Positions 12,567 through 64,000 of a stretch of 64,000 nucleotides of DNA are shown here, one piece after another. A program made the position numbers and the translations under genes. Origin of the DNA: Nesterenkonia populi (lineage in GTDB: Bacteria; Actinomycetota; Actinomycetes; Actinomycetales; Micrococcaceae); NCBI RefSeq assembly GCF_007994735.1, contig NZ_VOIL01000001.1, positions 744,001-808,000 on the forward strand, given 5' to 3'. Numbering within the stretch: the stretch's first letter is position 1; each line of letters starts with the position of its first letter. A model generated the notes under the pieces. The model was given only the letters and a program-made list of their open reading frames with translations, ran no database searches and was not told the origin of the DNA.

Positions 12567-13985
12567 GTGATTCAGGGCACGGCGACCAGCGACGAGCCGC
12601 ACACGGCAGTGCGGGACGACACCGCTGCGCGCCCCGCCGCCGCGCCGGTTCCCGGCGAGCTTGCCCGACTGGGGCGGAGGTCCTTCTCCCGCGGGCTCGT
12701 CGCCGAGACCCAGGAGAGCGGCAAGAACGACTTTGCCCGCCCCCAGCGCCGCGACCGGCCCCGCAACGGCGAAGCGCTCCGCCCCGGCGCCCGCCAGGAG
12801 ACCCTCCGGGAGGCCAACCTGCTGGTCCTCACCGAAGAGATCTTCGCCGCCGCCGAGCCTCTCTCCCGGGCAGACCTCAGCATCCGCACCGGAATGACCC
12901 GCTCCACGGTCTCCCGTCTGGTGGACGAGCTGCTGGCCGCCGGGATCGTCCGCGAAGGATCCCCCGTCGTCGGGGGCGCCCGCGGCCGGCCCGCAGTGCC
13001 GCTGACCCCCGCCCGGAAGACCCTCGCGGGCCTCGGGGTGGAGGTCAACGTGAACTTCATGGCCGCCCGAGCCCTGGATCTCACCGGGGCGGTGCTGTCC
13101 GAGGAGATCATCGAAGGCGACTACCGCGACTCCGACCCCGCCCAGGTGCTGGGCAGCGCCGGCGCGCTCGCCGGCCGGGTCGCCGCCGCAGCCCAGCAAA
13201 CCGGCGCACGGGTGGTCGGCACCGTCGCAGCGATCCCCGGCCTGGTCGCCGGCGACGAACGCTCCCTGCTCTACGCCCCCAACCTTGGGTGGAAGTCCGT
13301 GGACGTCATCGACGCGTTCGGGGCAGGCTGGCCGGAGCGCCCGGGGTTCGCCCTCGTGGTCAATGAGGCCAAGCTCGCCGCGCTCGCCGTCGCCGAGGAG
13401 CTCACCGCCGAGGACCTCACTGAGCAGACCTTCATCTACCTCTCCGCCCAGGCTGGGATCGGCTCCGCGGTGGTGGTGGACGGGCTCGTCGACCCAGGCC
13501 CCCACGGCTGGGCCGGGGAGATCGGCCACCTCACCGTGGAGCCCTCCGGCCCCCAGTGCAGCTGCGGCTCCACCGGCTGCCTGGAGGTCTACGCCGGCAA
13601 GCACAGCCTGCTGCAGGCCGCCGGGCTCAGCCCCACGGGCACCGCTGAAGATCTCGTCTCACTGACCGAGGGCGACGACGACGCCGCAGCTCAGGCCCGC
13701 GCCGCCGTCGCCCAGGCGGGGGAAGCTCTCGGGGTTGCGCTCTCCGGGGCGGTGAACCTGGTGGACGTGCACGACGTCGTCCTCGGCGGCGAGTTCGCTC
13801 CGCTCACCGATCTGCTCCGCTCCTGCATCGAAGCTCAGCTGCGGCAGCGGGTCCTGGCCGCCGAGTTCTGCGAGTTCCGTGTCCGCGAATCCCGCAGCGG
13901 GCTCTCCCCCGCAGCCAGCGGCGGCGCCCTCCGTGCCCTCCGCGCTGTCATCGAAGCACCCCAGGACTGGGTGCCGGCCGCATAG
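12567..13985 (+). CDS. xylR: ROK-family transcriptional repressor, probable XylR
   Basis: 472 residues from a GTG at 12567. A winged helix at about residues 80-130 contains LSIRTGMTRSTVSRLVDELL. A ROK sugar-kinase-like domain follows, with the zinc/ROK signature CSCGSTGCLEVYAG near residue 335 and EIGHLTVEPSGPQC before it. ROK repressors of this kind control xylose genes in actinobacteria and Bacillus. The first 70-80 residues (rich in Pro, Arg, Gly) precede the DNA-binding domain and are longer than usual, so the true start could be internal. It is divergent from xylAB with a palindromic site in between. Confidence 0.88.
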   Translation: MIQGTATSDEPHTAVRDDTAARPAAAPVPGELARLGRRSFSRGLVAETQESGKNDFARPQRRDRPRNGEALRPGARQETLREANLLVLTEEIFAAAEPLSRADLSIRTGMTRSTVSRLVDELLAAGIVREGSPVVGGARGRPAVPLTPARKTLAGLGVEVNVNFMAARALDLTGAVLSEEIIEGDYRDSDPAQVLGSAGALAGRVAAAAQQTGARVVGTVAAIPGLVAGDERSLLYAPNLGWKSVDVIDAFGAGWPERPGFALVVNEAKLAALAVAEELTAEDLTEQTFIYLSAQAGIGSAVVVDGLVDPGPHGWAGEIGHLTVEPSGPQCSCGSTGCLEVYAGKHSLLQAAGLSPTGTAEDLVSLTEGDDDAAAQARAAVAQAGEALGVALSGAVNLVDVHDVVLGGEFAPLTDLLRSCIEAQLRQRVLAAEFCEFRVRESRSGLSPAASGGALRALRAVIEAPQDWVPAA

Positions 13986-43097: not shown

Positions 43098-44228
43098 TCA
43101 CTCGTCCTCTTCGGCCTCGTCCTCGTCGCCAGCCTCGGCGTCGTCCTCGGAGGGAGCGTTGTCGCTCTCGACCACGGTCTCACCGGCAATGATCTCCTCG
43201 GTGATCTGCTCGACGGCCTCAACGACCTCCTCCGGGACATCGTCCTCGAAGTCGTGGAACGGTGCCAGGCCGACACCCTCGTTCTCGAGGTCCCCGACAT
43301 AGGGCTCGTTGCTGAACTCTTCGTTCACACCCTCTTCGATGGTGTCGTACACAGCCTGGGAGATCTGCTTCAGCACGGAGGTCAGGATGATGTCACCGTA
43401 TTCGGTGGACTCGTAGCCGTCGGAGTCAACCCAGATCATCTGGGCGTCGGCGGACTCGATGGCCGGGCCCGCGCCCAGGCCGGCGTTGCCGGCGACCGGC
43501 ATGATGATGTCGGCGTCCTGGGCCAAGAGCTGCTCGGTGACCTGCTGGCCCTGGGTCTGGTCGGAGAAGTCGCCGGAGAAGGAGCCGTTCTGGGCGTCCT
43601 TGTCCCAGCCGACGAGCTCGACGTCTTCGTCGTTGTCCTCGTTGTAGCGGTCCACGCCGTCGGAGAAGCCGTCCATGAACACGGTCACCGAGGGGATCTG
43701 GATGCCGCCCCAGGTGCCCACGGTGCCTGACTCGGTCATGGCCGCGGCCACGTAGCCGCCCAGGTAGGCGGCCTCGGCGGTGTTGAAGACCAGGGGCTTG
43801 GCGTTCTCGTGCTCCTCGGAGAAGACTTCGTCGATGAGGGCGAAGTCGGTGTCCGGGTTGGCCCCGGCGGCAGCGTTCAGAGACTCCTCCAGGAGGAAGC
43901 CGACGCCGAAGACGACGTCGCAGCCCTGCTGGACCATGGCGTCCACGTTGGTGTCGTAGTCAGCCTCGGACTGGGACTCCGCGGTCTGGTCGTCGACGCC
44001 GAAGTCCTCGATGGCGTCCTGGAGACCCTCGTAGGCGGACTGGTTGAAGGACTGGTCGTCCCAGCCGCCCTCGTCGGAGACCAGGCATGCGGTGTAGTCG
44101 ACGTCTTCAGCAGCCTCGCCGTTCTCGCCGTCGCCGTTCTCCTCATCGGGGGCTTCGCCGCAGGCGGAGAGCGTCAGTGCGGCAGCGGCGGCCAGGGCAA
44201 TGCCGGCACGTGAGGTGATGGGCTTCAT
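43098..44228 (-). CDS. BMP-family substrate-binding lipoprotein (copy 1, in transporter operon)
   Basis: 376 residues from the ATG at 44228 with GAGGAG upstream; a longer frame from 44294 is rejected. Lipobox LTLSAC, Cys23, followed by acidic linker. The BMP/PnrA fold is shown by CLVSDEGGWDDQSFNQSAYE, QGCDVVFGVGFLLEES, DTDFALIDEVF, GYVAAAMTESGTVGTWGGIQ, VFMDGFSDGVDRYN and ADIIMPVAGNAGLGAG. Known members bind purine nucleosides. The very acidic C-terminal tail (about 25 residues, mainly Asp/Glu) is unusual and fits a salt-adapted cell surface. A close paralogue lies at 62737-63825 and shares leader sequence. Confidence 0.92.
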   Translation of the reverse strand: MKPITSRAGIALAAAAALTLSACGEAPDEENGDGENGEAAEDVDYTACLVSDEGGWDDQSFNQSAYEGLQDAIEDFGVDDQTAESQSEADYDTNVDAMVQQGCDVVFGVGFLLEESLNAAAGANPDTDFALIDEVFSEEHENAKPLVFNTAEAAYLGGYVAAAMTESGTVGTWGGIQIPSVTVFMDGFSDGVDRYNEDNDEDVELVGWDKDAQNGSFSGDFSDQTQGQQVTEQLLAQDADIIMPVAGNAGLGAGPAIESADAQMIWVDSDGYESTEYGDIILTSVLKQISQAVYDTIEEGVNEEFSNEPYVGDLENEGVGLAPFHDFEDDVPEEVVEAVEQITEEIIAGETVVESDNAPSEDDAEAGDEDEAEEDE

Positions 44229-44297
44229 GTAGGGGCTCCTCAGAGATGCGATGTGAGTGAAAGCTGCGTCGTTCCTCGCAGCATTGGAGAGCATCTT

Positions 44298-44374: not shown

Positions 44375-45001
44375 TCAGTCCAGGGTGCCTGCTCTATATG
44401 AGCGTGCCGAGCGCTCGAGCTCTTCAGCCGTACGGACCAGCTGGTTGGCCCGGGAGGTCAGCTGGCGTGCATCCTCCTTGGAGAGGCGCTGCCTGTCCGT
44501 CCAGAGGGCCTGTCCTCGCGCGATGACCCGGCAGAAGGCCGCGGCCCGGTCGAACGCGACGTCGATGTCGCCGTCGTGCATCCCGCTGAGCACCCGGTCT
44601 GCCAGGCGTGTCATCTCTTCGGCGGTGGGCGGCTCCGCGATTCCGGCGATGACGTGCGGGGCGGAGTCGGAGCGGCCCAGCTGGTAGTACTCGCTCATCC
44701 GTTCGGGGGAGGAGTGGACCGCGGTGCGCAGCGCGTAGATGCGCCAGAGGGAGCCGGCCAGCGAGTGGGCCGAGGAGTGTGCCCACAGTCCGGCGACGGC
44801 GTCGATCCCCTCGGTCTCGGCGAGCCGGACGAACCGTGCGGTCAGATCGGGGTCGCCGGCGCTGCGCCCGGCGTCGACCAGTGCGTGGGCGGAGTCGTGG
44901 GCCGCTTGGGAGATCGCGGCAGGGTCGGCTCCGCCTTCGCGGCGGTCAAAGCTGGCGGGGTCGTTGTAGGCCGGGCGGCGGAAGCGCGGAGCATCGCTCA
45001 T
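44375..45001 (-). CDS. Conserved actinobacterial helical protein, function unknown
   Basis: 208 residues from the ATG at 45001; a longer frame from 45040 exists. Predicted mostly helical and cytoplasmic. Recognisable conserved-looking stretches are LWAHSSAHSLAGSLWRIYAL and ADRVLSGMHDGDIDVAFDRA, which resemble a family of uncharacterised actinobacterial proteins sometimes mislabelled as RNA polymerase subunits. No catalytic motif, signal or membrane segment is visible. It stands alone between the bmp operon and an oxidoreductase gene on the same strand. Confidence 0.72.
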   Translation of the reverse strand: MSDAPRFRRPAYNDPASFDRREGGADPAAISQAAHDSAHALVDAGRSAGDPDLTARFVRLAETEGIDAVAGLWAHSSAHSLAGSLWRIYALRTAVHSSPERMSEYYQLGRSDSAPHVIAGIAEPPTAEEMTRLADRVLSGMHDGDIDVAFDRAAAFCRVIARGQALWTDRQRLSKEDARQLTSRANQLVRTAEELERSARSYRAGTLD

Positions 45002-45117
45002 ATGATGCGAGGATACGCGCCAGCTTCGGTGCGGCACCACCGCCGCTGTGGGAGAGCAGCCTTCTGTCCTGGGTGCGGATCGACGGGCGCAGGGGGCGTC
45101 TCCCTCAGCTGCCTGTT

Positions 45118-46046: not shown

Positions 46047-46157
46047 GAAGGGCGCGTTTCCGCGTGCCCAACGACCCGGGACAGCCTTCTGGGTACCAGG
46101 CGTGCGGAACGTCGTTGGACAATCGAATACACGGATGCCGCCTCATAGCGGCGGCAT

Positions 46158-46448
46158 GGGCCTTTAGCTCAGTTGGTAGAGCATCGGACTTCAAATAGGA
46201 GCGCCCCAGCGGAAACGTTGGGGATGACACCACTCAAAGTCGGGGAACCCTTCCTAGATCATCTAGATGGCAATCCCGAGCCAAGCCGAGACAGCTGTCT
46301 CGGAAGGTGTAGAGACTGGACGGGTGGCACCTACGGCAGACGCTACGGTGAAGGGACAGTCCAGACCACGAACGCCCAGCAGGGCGGCGGCGAAAGCCGA
46401 AGTGGGAGGTTAATCCGCTGGTCGCGGGTTCGAGTCCCGCAGGGCCCA
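46158..46448 (+). tRNA. tRNA-Lys(UUU), interrupted by a group I intron in the anticodon
   Basis: Joining 46158-46191 to 46410-46448 gives a standard 73-nt tRNA. The acceptor stem GGGCCTT/AGGGCCC has a single T-G wobble. The D arm is GCTC-AGTTGGTA-GAGC, the T arm GCGGG-TTCGAGT-CCCGC, and the variable loop is short (TGGTC). The anticodon loop is C-T-T|T-T-A-A, anticodon TTT, so it should read lysine codons AAA/AAG. The short variable loop excludes tRNA-Leu. The intron is between positions 34 and 35, the same place as in the cyanobacterial tRNA-Leu(UAA) intron. Base pair 27-43 is a T/C mismatch. The CCA end is not fully encoded (CCG). A hairpin terminator follows. Confidence 0.93.
46192..46409 (+). 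ncRNA. Group I intron (subgroup IC3-like), 218 nt
   Basis: P1: exon CTT plus intron C pairs with GGAG just before P2, giving the required U-G at the 5' splice site. P2: CCCCAGCG/CGTTGGGG (46204-46211/46216-46223) with GAAA loop. P3: ACACC/GGTGT (46227-46231/46306-46310). P4: TCGGG/CCCGA (46240-46244/46275-46279). P6: CCGAGACAG/CTGTCTCGG. P7: GACTG/CAGTC (46314-46318/46357-46361). P8: CACC/GGTG (46329-46332/46347-46350). P9 region: CGCCC/GGGCG and a CGGC-GAAA-GCCG hairpin. The last base is G46409 (omega-G). Core joining segments resemble the Azoarcus tRNA-Ile intron from memory. No endonuclease gene fits inside. It should self-splice; it is the only RNA intron seen here. Confidence 0.93.
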
Positions 46449-46456
46449 CCGTGAAC

Positions 46457-46497
46457 ACAAAACCCCCAGTCAGTGCGATATGACTAGGGGGTTTTGT
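46457..46497 (+). terminator. Terminator after tRNA-Lys
   Basis: ACAAAACCCCC (46457-46467) pairs with GGGGGTTTTGT (46487-46497), extended inside by AGTCA/TGACT with one bulged A; the loop is short and a T-rich tract is in the descending arm. It is 9 bases past the tRNA end. Confidence 0.88.
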
Positions 46498-46974
46498 CGT
46501 GCGGCATCGGCCGAATCGATGACGTTGTGCGGGGACCACTCGACTCAGCAGCCCTCCTTGGTGGCCGTTTACTGCAACTCCAGGCGGGCAGGGTGCCCGT
46601 GCACATGAGTTCTACCCATCCAAAGTTGCGTCGAGAGCTGCTTTAACCGTCGAGACGCAACTTTCAATGGGTCATCGGAGGGGAAAGAACCGGTGCAACC
46701 CCGTGAGAGTTGCACACGAAGACAAGCGTCATGATGTATCCCGACCTGGGTCTCTAGCCAGCTTCGAGACGATCTCTCTGAGGATGAGGCCACCCATCGT
46801 CGTAGGCCAGGCCGAAATCCGCCGCCATAACAGTCCTCTATGGGATGCGGGGCATTAGCGTCGGACCATTTCGGGACGAGATCGACGGCCTGCTGAAGAA
46901 TGTCGTTCGCGTCGTTCCTGTCGGCGGGGCGACTGTCACCGCTGCTGTGTTCAGAGGCGTCTAAAGTGCAAGTC
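46498..46974. other. Intergenic remnant downstream of tRNA-Lys, no intact gene
   Basis: No convincing coding region was found on either strand in these 477 bases. They hold the long inverted repeat at 46615-46671, a smaller one (GTGCAAC/GTTGCAC near 46692-46715), and then the truncated AbiEi coding sequence begins. The composition and structure suggest debris of an insertion. Confidence 0.5.
46615..46671. repeat. Long imperfect inverted repeat
   Basis: AAAGTTGCGTC (46622-46632) is the exact inverse of GACGCAACTTT (46654-46664), and the dyad continues outward as CCCAT (46615-46619) and ATGGG (46667-46671) across a 2-base mismatch. The inner 21 bases are not paired. It lies upstream of the AbiEi remnant. 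It may be an AbiEi-type operator, an old terminator or the trace of a small mobile element. Confidence 0.6.
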
Positions 46975-47259
46975 ATGAGCGCTCAGCGGGAGGGTCTGCT
47001 GTCGCGAGAGGATGTGAGCAGGGTCGATGGCCTGCCGGTGATGAGGGTAGAGCGCATGATCGCAGACCTGGTGGAGACCAACCAGGACCTCTCGCTGGTG
47101 GGAGACGTCCTCAGCGATGCCCGCCGGGCCGGACTGATTGCCTCGGATGCGAAACTGGCGCACTATCTGGAGCCTCTGGCGCGGCGGAATCAGCGTTCCT
47201 CCGGTACGGACTTGCGAGAGTGCCTCTACGAAGTGGCAGGCGTTTCAACTGGACAGTGA
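46975..47259 (+). pseudogene. Truncated AbiEi-type antitoxin (C-terminal part)
   Basis: 94 residues from the ATG at 46975, corresponding to the C-terminal half of actinobacterial type IV antitoxins: VSRVDGLPVMRVERMIADLV, then DLSLVGDVLSDARRAGLIA and LEPLARRNQRSSG. The winged-helix N-terminal domain (about 90 residues) that binds DNA is missing, as no matching sequence is found upstream in any frame. In intact loci AbiEi represses its operon and neutralises AbiEii. The remnant overlaps the AbiEii remnant by a few bases, the normal order for the pair. Confidence 0.7.
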
Positions 47260-47764
47260 ACAGTACGGCAGCTGGAAGACGTTCTCCGCCGCCTACAAGG
47301 CGGTCGCCAGGAACGATCAGCGGGCAACGGTGGATGCGCATCTGCGCTTCGCCGTCTTCGACCGGTTCCTCTGCCGAGTCTTCGCAGACCAGGAACGCAG
47401 TGAATGGCTGCTGAAGGGCGGAACCGGTCTTCTCGCGCGCGTTCCCGACTTGCGTGCAACCAAGGATGTGGACCTGGTCACCACAGAGAAAGAGCTCCAC
47501 GACGCGCAGGGAGCTCTCATCGACGTGGCTCAGCGGGACCTCGGAGACCACGTGGAGTTCCACTTCAAATCCTCCCAGCCCACAGGCGGGGGAGAGAACC
47601 AGCCGAACGTCCAGGCACGGCAGGTGACCTTCGTCTGTTCGGACGCGGATACCGGCCGGTGGATCGGGGATGTGAAGGTGGACCTGGCCTGGCAGTGCAG
47701 TACTGGCCAGGACCACTCGAGGATGCACAGCCGGCCGAGGACAAGGACTACTGGGCGAACATGA
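47249..47764 (+). pseudogene. Truncated AbiEii-type nucleotidyltransferase toxin
   Basis: In frame from about 47249: SEQYGSWKTFSAAYKAVARN, then FDRFLCRVFADQERSEWLLK and GGTGLLARVPDLRATKDVDL. The GG(T)...DxDL segment is the nucleotidyltransferase motif I of AbiEii toxins, followed by a second acidic motif GDVKVDLAW near residue 150. After this the sequence changes character (TGQDHSRMHSRPRTRTTGRT) and stops at 47764, so the C-terminal half with the remaining motifs is lost. No start codon is found in this frame near the expected beginning. Both points indicate a dead toxin gene next to a dead antitoxin gene. Confidence 0.68.
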
Positions 47765-62736: not shown

Positions 62737-63825
62737 CTACTGCTGGGGGGCGTTCTCACTTTCGAGAACGGTCTCGCCTGAGATGATCTCCTCGCGGAGG
62801 CGCTCCAGGTCATCACTGACCTGCTGAGGCACCTCGTCCTCGAACGTGTGGAACGGAGCCAGGCCTACGCCCTCGTTCTCGAGGTCCCCGATGTATGTCT
62901 CGTTGCTGAACCGGCCTGCCTCACCCTCCTCGATGGTGTCGTACACCGCCTCAGAGATCTGCTTCTTCACCGAGGTGAGGATGACGTCGCCGTAGCGGGT
63001 GGAGTGGTAGCCGTCGGAGTCCACCCAGATCATCGCCGCCTCCGCCTCGACGATCATGTCGCCGGCGCCCAGGCCGGCGTTGCCGGCGACCGGCATGATG
63101 ATGTCAGCGCCCCAGGCCAGCAGCTGCTCGGTGACGAGCTCACCCTGGGTCGTGTCGGTGAAGTCCCCGGAGAAGGAGCCTTCCTGCGTCTCCTTGTCCC
63201 AGCCCACAAGCTCGACGTCCTCACCGTTGTCCTCGTTGTAGCGGTCCACGCCGTCGGCGAAGCCGTCCATGAACACGGCCACCGAGGGGAGCTGAATGCC
63301 GCCCCAGGTGCCCACGGTGCCTGACTCGGTCATGGCCGCGGCCAGGTAGCCGGCCAGGTAGGCGGCCTCACCGGTGTTGAACACCAGGGTCCTGGCGTTC
63401 TCGTGCTCCTCGGAGATGACCTCGTCGATGAGGGCGAACTCAGTGTCCGGCTGAGCCGCAGCTGTGGCGTTGATCGTCTCCTCGAGCATGAAGCCGACGC
63501 CGAAGATGAGGTCGCACTCAGCCTCAAGCATCTCCTCCATATTCGGCTCGTAGTCCCACTCATAGGTGGACTGGGCCTCGTCGTGCCCGATGCCGAAGTC
63601 GTCGACGGCGCGCATCACGCCCTCGTAGGCGGACTGGTTGAAGGATTCGTCGTCCCAGCCGCCCTGATCAGAGATGAGGCAGGCACCGTAATGGGCGTCC
63701 GAGGGGCGTACGTCAACCTCCTCCTCCTCCTCGGGCTCCTCCTCGTTGGCGCCGCCGCAGGCGGTCAGGACGAGGGCGGCAGTCGTTGCCAGGGCCGTTC
63801 CGACACGAGAAAATATGGAGTTCAT
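62737..63825 (-). CDS. BMP-family substrate-binding lipoprotein (copy 2, orphan)
   Basis: 362 residues, paralogous to the protein at 43098-44228. Lipobox LVLTAC, Cys23, then an acidic linker. It shares most of the ligand-binding text of copy 1: SDQGGWDDESFNQSAYEGVM, CDLIFGVGFMLEETINA, GYLAAAMTESGTVGTWGGIQ, VFMDGFADGVDRYNEDNGED and ADIIMPVAGNAGLGAG. No permease or ATPase is adjacent, so it may use the transporter at 38940-43047 with different ligand preference. The acidic C-terminal tail of copy 1 is absent. Its leader shares GGAACGACGCAG with copy 1, so the duplication included upstream sequence. Confidence 0.92.
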   Translation of the reverse strand: MNSIFSRVGTALATTAALVLTACGGANEEEPEEEEEVDVRPSDAHYGACLISDQGGWDDESFNQSAYEGVMRAVDDFGIGHDEAQSTYEWDYEPNMEEMLEAECDLIFGVGFMLEETINATAAAQPDTEFALIDEVISEEHENARTLVFNTGEAAYLAGYLAAAMTESGTVGTWGGIQLPSVAVFMDGFADGVDRYNEDNGEDVELVGWDKETQEGSFSGDFTDTTQGELVTEQLLAWGADIIMPVAGNAGLGAGDMIVEAEAAMIWVDSDGYHSTRYGDVILTSVKKQISEAVYDTIEEGEAGRFSNETYIGDLENEGVGLAPFHTFEDEVPQQVSDDLERLREEIISGETVLESENAPQQ

Positions 63826-64000
63826 TGTGGAGAGGGTCCTCAGTGGTGCGGGAGTGAAGAACTGCGTCGTTCCATCGCAATCCTAAGGAAAAAACTCTAC
63901 CCCCTCCGCGTTGCCGGCGGGTGAACCGGGAACGGCGGGGAAAATCCGGCGTCATAAAGTGCTGCGGCCTGCGCCCGGCAGGTTCCGCCTAGACTCATGC

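What the first reader, a model, noticed from the sequence alone, without database searches (positions are those of the whole stretch)
46158..46448. Group I intron splits a tRNA-Lys(UUU) gene between anticodon bases 34 and 35
Seen: two exons join into a canonical 73-nt tRNA-Lys with anticodon TTT, and the 218-nt insert has all helices P1-P9, a U-G pair at the 5' splice site, P7 GACTG/CAGTC and a terminal G. Known: bacterial tRNA group I introns are reported in tRNA-Leu(UAA), fMet, Arg(CCU) and Ile(CAU), mainly in cyanobacteria and proteobacteria. I do not recall a tRNA-Lys example in an actinobacterium. If the genome has no other tRNA-Lys(UUU), splicing would be needed to read AAA codons.
Basis: partly seen in the sequence, partly recalled or inferred. 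Interest (0 to 1): 0.95.

Follow-up and report, generated by a model that had tools for sequence, protein, structure and literature searches.

The report
Intron-masked rescue tRNA-Lys gene
The only gene found for one lysine tRNA in this bacterium is cut in two by a group I intron predicted to splice itself out, and in related bacteria the same kind of split gene lies between the two halves of a broken host tRNA gene, where it likely replaces the tRNA lost to a mobile element while its intron would hide it from that element's integrase.

Summary
Confirmed: a tRNA-Lys(UUU) gene (46158-46450) is interrupted after base 34 by a 218-nt group I intron. Across 42 introns 98% of helix cells pair and 27 of 56 pairs change on both sides. 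No other Lys(UUU) gene was found in the 99.3% complete genome, so splicing is probably essential. The feature is not unique: 38 public contigs, 37 actinobacterial by title, carry it.
The surprise is the context in relatives. In five other Nesterenkonia genomes the native tRNA-Lys is broken at CTTTTAATCCGCT in its anticodon arm, and the intron-bearing gene is a second, complete copy, in G002 between the halves. Prauserella salsuginis shows the same layout. Gordonia phage Daredevil carries one that a 2024 paper did not see. This matches tRNA-dependent lysogeny (PMC10865867) with a new twist: the intron interrupts the integrase core in the rescue gene. Proposed function: att masking (inferred, untested). 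The window's own genome shows no att halves, so its copy is a leftover rescue gene or an intron gained in place, as in Microbacterium. Against masking: published rescue tRNAs are reported as ordinary genes, and Daredevil makes clear plaques.

The parts
46158..46191 (+). 5' exon of tRNA-Lys(UUU), ends after U34
   Evidence: ARAGORN on joined exons; identical to exon 1 of many empty-site genes
46192..46409 (+). group I intron, 218 nt; no frame of 100 aa or more lies within it (one 101-aa frame on the other strand, 46234-46539, runs through it)
   Evidence: RF00028 28.6 bits; covariation on 42 introns; frames
46410..46450 (+). 3' exon of tRNA-Lys(UUU), starts with U35
46189..46201 (+). P1: exon CTT pairs with GAG of the intron, U.G at the splice site
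   Evidence: possible in 42 of 42 introns
46204..46223 (+). P2 hairpin
   Evidence: 8 pairs, 98.5% of cells paired, 5 with change on both sides
46230..46235 (+). P3 5' strand (3' strand 46322-46327)
   Evidence: 6 pairs, 100% paired, 3 with change on both sides
46240..46307 (+). P4-P5-P6 domain
   Evidence: both-side changes in P4, P5, P5a and P6a; P6 itself never varies
46314..46318 (+). P7 5' strand GACTG (3' strand CAGTC 46357-46361), guanosine-binding helix
   Evidence: 100% paired; one of 5 pairs changes on both sides
46328..46350 (+). P8 hairpin
   Evidence: 100% paired, one pair with change on both sides
46366..46405 (+). P9 (invariant) with P9a and P9b, before the terminal G
46135..46157 (+). 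hairpin abutting the tRNA 5' end (loop TCATAG shared with the Nesterenkonia alba rescue gene); role unknown
   Evidence: read by eye; similarity of the 60-nt leader to rescue leaders passes the 95% shuffle level for 2 of 8 only
46458..46496 (+). terminator-like hairpin after the gene
   Evidence: read by eye
44375..45040 (-). conserved 221-aa gene, no Pfam match; in relatives it borders the native tRNA-Lys or its broken 5' half

Best explanation
The window holds the only tRNA-Lys(UUU) gene found in its genome, cut by a 218-nt group I intron that is predicted to splice itself out, and it most likely descends from a rescue tRNA gene of an integrative element in which the intron would hide the integrase target. 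Shown: in five other Nesterenkonia genomes the native tRNA-Lys gene is broken at a short core in its anticodon arm, and a second, complete tRNA-Lys(UUU) gene with this intron is present, in G002 between the two halves. Shown: Prauserella salsuginis has the same layout. Inferred: the second gene replaces the broken essential tRNA, as demonstrated for other actinobacterial phages (tRNA-dependent lysogeny). Inferred: the intron splits the core CTTTTAATCC as CTT / TTAATCC at the DNA level, so an integrase would not attack the rescue gene, while RNA splicing restores the tRNA. Inferred and least certain: in the window's genome the rest of the element was later lost and the rescue gene became the resident gene.
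For: Sole Lys(UUU): RF00005 gives 46 tRNA genes over the cut-off; ARAGORN on their loci gives one Lys gene, CTT; two patterns for the uninterrupted anticodon arm find none in G000. 20 AAA and 73 AAG codons in 13 window genes. Genus survey (30 genomes): 7 carry the full-length intron; in 5 of these the native gene is broken and both halves are found, ARAGORN seeing no tRNA in either; in the other 2 (G000, G014) no native copy is found. Of 23 intronless genomes 21 have an intact Lys(ttt) gene by ARAGORN; the other two are 65% and 82% complete. G002: 5' half 2262252, intron gene 2273467, 3' half 2290294, one strand. Element ends carry repeated TGGTGGCCATTTTG arms; left ends agree at 82-100% over 131-220 nt in four genomes, G004's only in the arm. 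A tyrosine integrase is present at 88-100% identity in G001, G002, G005, G007 and G014. P. salsuginis: 5' half at 279.6 kb, intron gene at 172.5 kb, 3' half at 159.3 kb, one contig and strand, 10-bp core CTTTTAATCC, no tRNA seen by ARAGORN in either half. Daredevil: integrase, attP core and intron-split tRNA-Lys within 2.3 kb. In G014, where no uninterrupted tRNA-Lys is found, the element copy on C15 ends at CTTTTAATACGC in other DNA; its other end was not found.
Against: No splicing, integration or lysogeny was tested. The window's genome shows no att halves, and its nearest integrase relative (52%) sits in a tRNA-CAT element with an ordinary 45-bp repeat. In Microbacterium the intron sits in the native gene, with more than 1 kb of shared flank on both sides in 6 of 8 loci, so an intron can be gained without an element, perhaps here too. 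Of 47 loci with the pattern only Daredevil's matched any of four integrase queries, and only it and N. alba hold an uninterrupted core. The intron's position follows from its own P1 target, so its coincidence with the core is not independent evidence. Published rescue tRNAs of other phages are reported as ordinary tRNA genes and work (PMC10865867, passages). Daredevil makes clear plaques there, which does not fit a working rescue gene. G025 has the element's 3' junction but no intron found (82% complete). G004 has no full-length integrase hit. No integrase was seen near the P. salsuginis sites (tblastn with four queries, and Pfam on 9 of 20 frames). In G234 the native gene is split at about 25/26, not at the core. 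The Nesterenkonia elements look like one lineage, not five independent events.
Confidence: 0.6

Rival explanations
1. The intron is a plain selfish or neutral group I intron that was gained in the native tRNA-Lys gene, in the window as in Microbacterium, and its presence in mobile rescue genes is hitch-hiking with no masking role.
For: In the genus of Microbacterium sp. MAH-37 11 of 149 genomes have it, and in 6 of 8 loci compared it lies at the native locus with conserved flanks. In the window it lies about 1.1 kb from the gene that borders the native tRNA-Lys in relatives. The insertion point is set by the intron's own P1 pairing. 46 of 47 pattern loci show no match to four integrase queries.
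Against: In Nesterenkonia it occurs only where the native gene is broken or missing (7 of 7) and in 0 of 21 genomes with an intact gene. Rescue copies with this intron occur with barely related integrases: the Nesterenkonia one and Daredevil's are 25% identical.
Confidence: 0.35
2. The native tRNA-Lys was replaced by an intron-bearing gene through homologous recombination of tRNA-flanking DNA, and the elements integrated later into a gene that was already redundant.
For: Two genomes have the intron gene and no att halves (G000, G014).
Against: In G002 and P. salsuginis the intron gene lies between the halves, inside the inserted DNA; by eye, leader and downstream DNA of the rescue genes differ from the native locus.
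Confidence: 0.1
3. The insert is a decayed, non-splicing intron and the tRNA is a pseudogene.
For: RF00028 score is below the curated threshold.
Against: Helices are kept by compensating changes in 42 homologues; the joined exons are called tRNA-Lys(ttt) in all 42; no other Lys(UUU) gene was found although AAA codons are used.
Confidence: 0.03

Closest known systems
tRNA-dependent lysogeny (Guerrero-Bustamante and Hatfull, mBio 2024, PMC10865867; abstract, outline and passages seen)
   Different: Those rescue tRNAs are reported as ordinary tRNA genes; here the gene carries a group I intron that interrupts the core. [quoted passage not shown] one search shows one in Daredevil, split by an intron. 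'Intron' occurs once in its text, in a reference title.
Bacterial tRNA group I introns in tRNA-Leu(UAA), fMet, Ile(CAU), Arg(CCU) (subgroup IC3 recalled; Leu, fMet, Ile and Arg named in passages of PMC5733544, fMet and Ile2 in passages of PMC8450103)
   Same: Small, no ORF, in the anticodon loop, conserved core; about 73% identical to an intron in a plasmid-borne tRNA-Leu(UAA)-like gene.
   Different: Host gene is tRNA-Lys(UUU), in Actinomycetota, partly on mobile elements.
Proposal that tRNA introns block integration (Randau and Soll for archaea, as cited in passages of PMC3293823)
   Same: An intron at an attachment site would stop integrase.
   Different: Archaeal introns are protein-spliced (recalled) and in the host gene; here a ribozyme intron sits in the mobile element's own rescue gene.
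Cyanobacterial tRNA-Lys(CTT) 'group I intron' (PMC5733544, passages)
   Same: Claimed tRNA-Lys intron.
   Different: That paper gives intron lengths of 22-49 nt, far too short for a group I core; another anticodon and phylum.

Membership tests
Group I intron | P3-P8 core with P7 guanosine site | tested here: met
   98.0% of cells paired; both-side changes in P2, P3, P4, P5, P5a, P6a, P7, P8, P9a and P9b; P6 and P9 never vary
Group I intron | U.G pair at the 5' splice site and terminal G | tested here: met
   42 of 42
Group I intron | Rfam RF00028 at gathering score | tested here: not met
   28.6 against 50 bits, E 3.2e-5; 0 at gathering. The score is a curated annotation threshold, not a structural feature
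Group I intron | self-splicing with exogenous guanosine | not testable with these tools
   needs RNA
tRNA-dependent lysogeny, in relatives | short core, native tRNA split and not rebuilt | tested here: met
   G001, G002, G004, G005, G007 and P. salsuginis
tRNA-dependent lysogeny, in relatives | cognate tRNA inside the element | tested here: met
   between the halves on one contig in G002 and P. salsuginis; on the contig and strand of one half in G001, G004 and G005; on a separate contig in G007
tRNA-dependent lysogeny, in relatives | tyrosine integrase | tested here: met
   four of five broken Nesterenkonia genomes and Daredevil; no full-length hit in G004 and none seen near the P. salsuginis sites
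tRNA-dependent lysogeny, in relatives | tRNA required for lysogeny | not testable with these tools
   needs genetics
tRNA-dependent element, the window itself | attL and attR halves of a broken tRNA-Lys | tested here: not met
   none in G000; so the window locus is not filed as an integrated element

The most novel reading that the evidence does not exclude
A self-splicing intron serves as an integrase mask: mobile elements that destroy an essential host tRNA on integration carry a replacement whose attachment core is hidden in DNA by a ribozyme and restored in RNA; the same intron in native tRNA genes of Microbacterium makes the host immune to such elements. Selection for masking then helps explain why bacterial group I introns favour anticodon loops.
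Probability: 0.4. Interest if true: 0.92.

Novelty: new variant of a known kind. Interest (0 to 1): 0.8.

Why it matters
It joins two separate subjects, tRNA group I introns and tRNA-targeting integrases, and makes the old idea that tRNA introns guard against integration testable in bacteria with a short DNA assay. It also shows that a tRNA finder can miss the rescue tRNA of a phage (Daredevil), which bears on how clear-plaque temperate phages are read, and that a probably essential tRNA gene is invisible to ARAGORN in this genome and the element carriers tested.

Tried and rejected
Rfam at gathering score and ARAGORN default found nothing; rejected as evidence of absence. ARAGORN -i called SeC(tca), rejected: a separate SeC gene exists and the 34/35 splice gives a canonical tRNA. 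A first pattern for intact tRNA-Lys had a wrong gap and found 0 of 31 genomes; corrected. Leader similarity between the window and rescue genes was tested: 2 of 8 rescue leaders pass the 95% shuffle level (scores 20 and 19 against 17), native and broken-native ones at most equal it, so it leans to the rescue type but is too weak to prove element origin. The second contig C2 of G000 was checked as the source element: its integrase is related but its target is a tRNA-CAT gene. Of 22 genomes matched, 14 have only 21-32 nt matches and were dropped; 8 have a full-length intron. From, 6 of 44 contigs (Gammaproteobacteria and Pseudomonadales) were dropped from the tRNA-Lys set: the one read in full, L178, is tRNA-Leu-like with the pattern met in the variable arm, the others share its 3' end. 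Whether intron-bearing Microbacterium have fewer elements in tRNA-Lys was glanced at; only 11 carriers, no test made.

Full report
What is there. The window (G000:C1:744001-808000; 2.55-Mb genome, 99.3% complete) holds a tRNA-Lys(UUU) gene at 46158-46450. Exons 46158-46191 and 46410-46450 join to a tRNA that ARAGORN calls Lys(ttt); the 218-nt insert 46192-46409 lies between U34 and U35. Default tRNA search of the window finds nothing. Rfam RF00028 fits at 28.6 bits, E 3.2e-5 on 801 bases, under its curated 50 bits, so both routes used here miss the gene at their default settings.

Is it a real group I intron. Blastn against 97 relatives and the own genome gives full-length copies in 7 genomes of the same genus (8 copies; the 7 outside the window are 91-94% identical to it) and uninterrupted exon pairs in many others. 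In the family 8 of 395 genomes have it full length, in the class 4 of 394 at E up to 1e-20, own genome included. A pattern scan of the genome collection gives 44 contigs, 38 of tRNA-Lys type and 6 judged tRNA-Leu. Named contigs with introns identical to those of G001, G004, G005, G007 and G014 put the genus as Nesterenkonia: N. sedimenti, N. alba DSM 19423, N. sphaerica, N. salmonea, N. alkaliphila F10. The 32 others are, by title, 20 Microbacterium, 2 Tsukamurella, 2 Prauserella, 4 Frankiales or Frankiaceae MAGs, 3 other Actinomycetota MAGs and a Gemmatimonadetes MAG. On 42 distinct introns (these 32, the 8 Nesterenkonia copies, G234 of the same family, and phage Daredevil) 56 proposed pairs are 98.0% paired and 27 change on both sides, against 13.9 in shuffles, 0 of 500 as high; sliding the partners by 1-3 columns drops pairing to 26-45%. 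The structure was drawn on the window's sequence, which favours it over slid versions. P1 with U.G at the splice site and the final G are present in 42 of 42, and spliced products are tRNA-Lys(ttt) in all. Splicing itself is predicted, not shown.

Is it needed. RF00005 finds 46 tRNA genes over the cut-off in the genome; ARAGORN on the fetched loci gives one Lys gene, anticodon CTT, an intact Leu(TAA) and a separate SeC. Patterns for an uninterrupted Lys(UUU) arm find none. AAA codons are used: 20 AAA, 73 AAG in 13 window genes. By established decoding rules (recalled) CUU does not read AAA, so splicing is probably essential.

What the relatives show. In Nesterenkonia the native tRNA-Lys sits beside the same conserved genes that lie at 41.5-45.0 kb of the window. 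In G001, G002, G004, G005 and G007 that gene is cut: its 5' half ends ...GGACTTTTAATCCGCT then element DNA, its 3' half starts at CTTTTAATCCGCT after other element DNA. ARAGORN sees no tRNA in either half, while it finds Lys(ttt) in 25 of 26 control loci picked as intact; the miss, L072, is a second 3' copy. The inserted DNA has repeated TGGTGGCCATTTTG arms near both ends; left ends of G001, G002, G005 and G007 agree at 82-100%, G004's only in the arm. A tyrosine integrase at 88-100% identity is in G001, G002, G005, G007 and G014; G004 gave only short end pieces. The intron-bearing tRNA-Lys is a second, complete gene: between the halves in G002 (2262252 / 2273467 / 2290294; two more 3' pieces follow downstream), on the contig and strand of one half in G001, G004 and G005, on a separate contig in G007. 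G014 and the window's genome have lost the native copy: in G014 the stretch read beside the native neighbour gene lacks the tRNA, and neither genome gives an att half. Of 23 intronless genomes, 21 have an intact gene; G008 is 65% complete, and G025 (82%, 500 contigs) has the element's 3' junction but no intron found, an exception that an incomplete assembly may explain.

Other cases. Prauserella salsuginis (G451:C3, 832,515 bases, the contig of L203) has a 5' half at 279.6 kb, the intron-bearing gene at 172.5 kb and a 3' half at 159.3 kb, all on the minus strand, with a 10-bp core CTTTTAATCC and no tRNA seen by ARAGORN in the halves; no integrase was recognised by tblastn with four queries or by Pfam on 9 of 20 frames in the three stretches. 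G234 (another genus of the family) has a tRNA-Lys split at about bases 25/26, the intron gene 0.15 kb after the 5' part, 24 kb of DNA with CBASS-like and restriction genes, and two tyrosine recombinases beside the 3' part. Gordonia phage Daredevil has integrase gp54, the core ACGGACTTTTAATCCGC and an intron-split tRNA-Lys(UUU) within 2.3 kb; its integrase is 25% identical to the Nesterenkonia one. Against a general link, of 47 pattern loci only Daredevil's own matched any of four integrase queries, and uninterrupted cores occur only there and in N. alba.

Link to the literature. mBio 2024 (PMC10865867; abstract, outline and passages) defines tRNA-dependent lysogeny: short core beginning CTT in tRNA-Lys-TTT, no rebuilt tRNA, a phage tRNA of the same isotype that is required. 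It states that Daredevil integrates at tRNA-Lys-TTT, does not rebuild it, has no tRNA of its own (only its cluster-mate Mollymur does) and makes clear plaques. The first two points fit the att core seen here; the third needs revision; the clear plaques count against that copy working well (its T-loop starts with A instead of T, seen). The authors speculate that plasmids can integrate in tandem using the rescue tRNA as a target, which is the problem an intron in the core would solve. Searches for group I introns with tRNA-Lys, actinobacteria, Microbacterium, tRNA-dependent lysogeny or attachment sites showed no report of this feature in their listings; some searches listed 30 of 213, 17 of 19 and 15 of 46 papers, and most subscription journals are not held. 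The idea that tRNA introns block integration exists for archaea (PMC3293823, passages).

Why masking, and why only moderately sure. The intron leaves CTT followed by intron DNA on one side and TTAATCC preceded by intron DNA on the other. In the genus, intron and broken or missing native gene go together in 7 of 7, and 0 of 21 genomes with an intact gene have the intron. In G014, where no uninterrupted tRNA-Lys is found, the element copy on C15 ends at CTTTTAATACGC in unrelated DNA, as if a secondary site had been used; its other end was not found. Yet the Nesterenkonia elements look like one lineage, the intron's insertion point is fixed by its own pairing, and published rescue tRNAs are reported as ordinary genes. 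In the genus of Microbacterium sp. MAH-37, 11 of 149 genomes have the intron, in the native gene with more than 1 kb of shared flank on both sides in 6 of 8 loci compared (of the others L267 is at a contig end, L264 shares little); so gain in place also occurs. Of 31 non-Nesterenkonia carriers searched (L221 was not held), 29 have no other uninterrupted gene by pattern, the two others being P. salsuginis with its 3' half and the Microbacterium MAG SH_68_12 with an intact one. The window's own copy could be either kind. I favour a leftover rescue gene at about 60:40, since in its genus the intron is otherwise known only from genomes with element-type copies; the leader comparison meant to decide it leans the same way but weakly.

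Noticed in passing
L176:2501-2707 (plasmid pCTX-M3) and 1272 plasmid records: A related group I intron (about 73% identical) splits what reads by eye as a tRNA-Leu(UAA) gene near aac(3)-IId; 1272 plasmid records match, two were viewed, and the gene is not listed there. Described only.
   Followed up: partly
L223 and L224 (IMG/VR contigs): A+T-rich viral contigs carry what reads by eye as a tRNA-Lys(UUU) gene with a related intron, just after a frame that looks HNH-like by eye, untested.
   Followed up: partly
G000:C2 (L237), 87-161 and 13550-13594: The 13.7-kb second contig carries an integrase 52% identical to the Nesterenkonia element's and has a tRNA-CAT gene at one end and a 45-bp repeat of its 3' part at the other: looks like an ordinary tRNA-rebuilding element.
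   Followed up: partly
G003:C1:1837377-1846254 (L173): A second 3' copy of tRNA-Lys 9 kb from the intact gene suggests another element that uses the same tRNA with a long repeat and rebuilds it: the classical solution in the same genus.
   Followed up: no
L155:8865-10109: The last 48 or so residues of the G002 integrase frame match many places in G002 and G004, so an insertion sequence has probably cut its end.
   Followed up: no
window 47138-47764: AbiEii-like frame covering less than half of the Pfam profile, just downstream of the split tRNA, possibly a remnant of defence cargo.
   Followed up: no
window 46560-46574: A TTGGTGGCCGTTTAC resembles the integrase arm repeats of the elements; one of 6 loose matches in the window, so weak.
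   Followed up: partly
window 43152-44280 and 62746-63879: The Bmp-type substrate-binding gene has a second copy in the window, about 78% identical over 1.1 kb.
   Followed up: no
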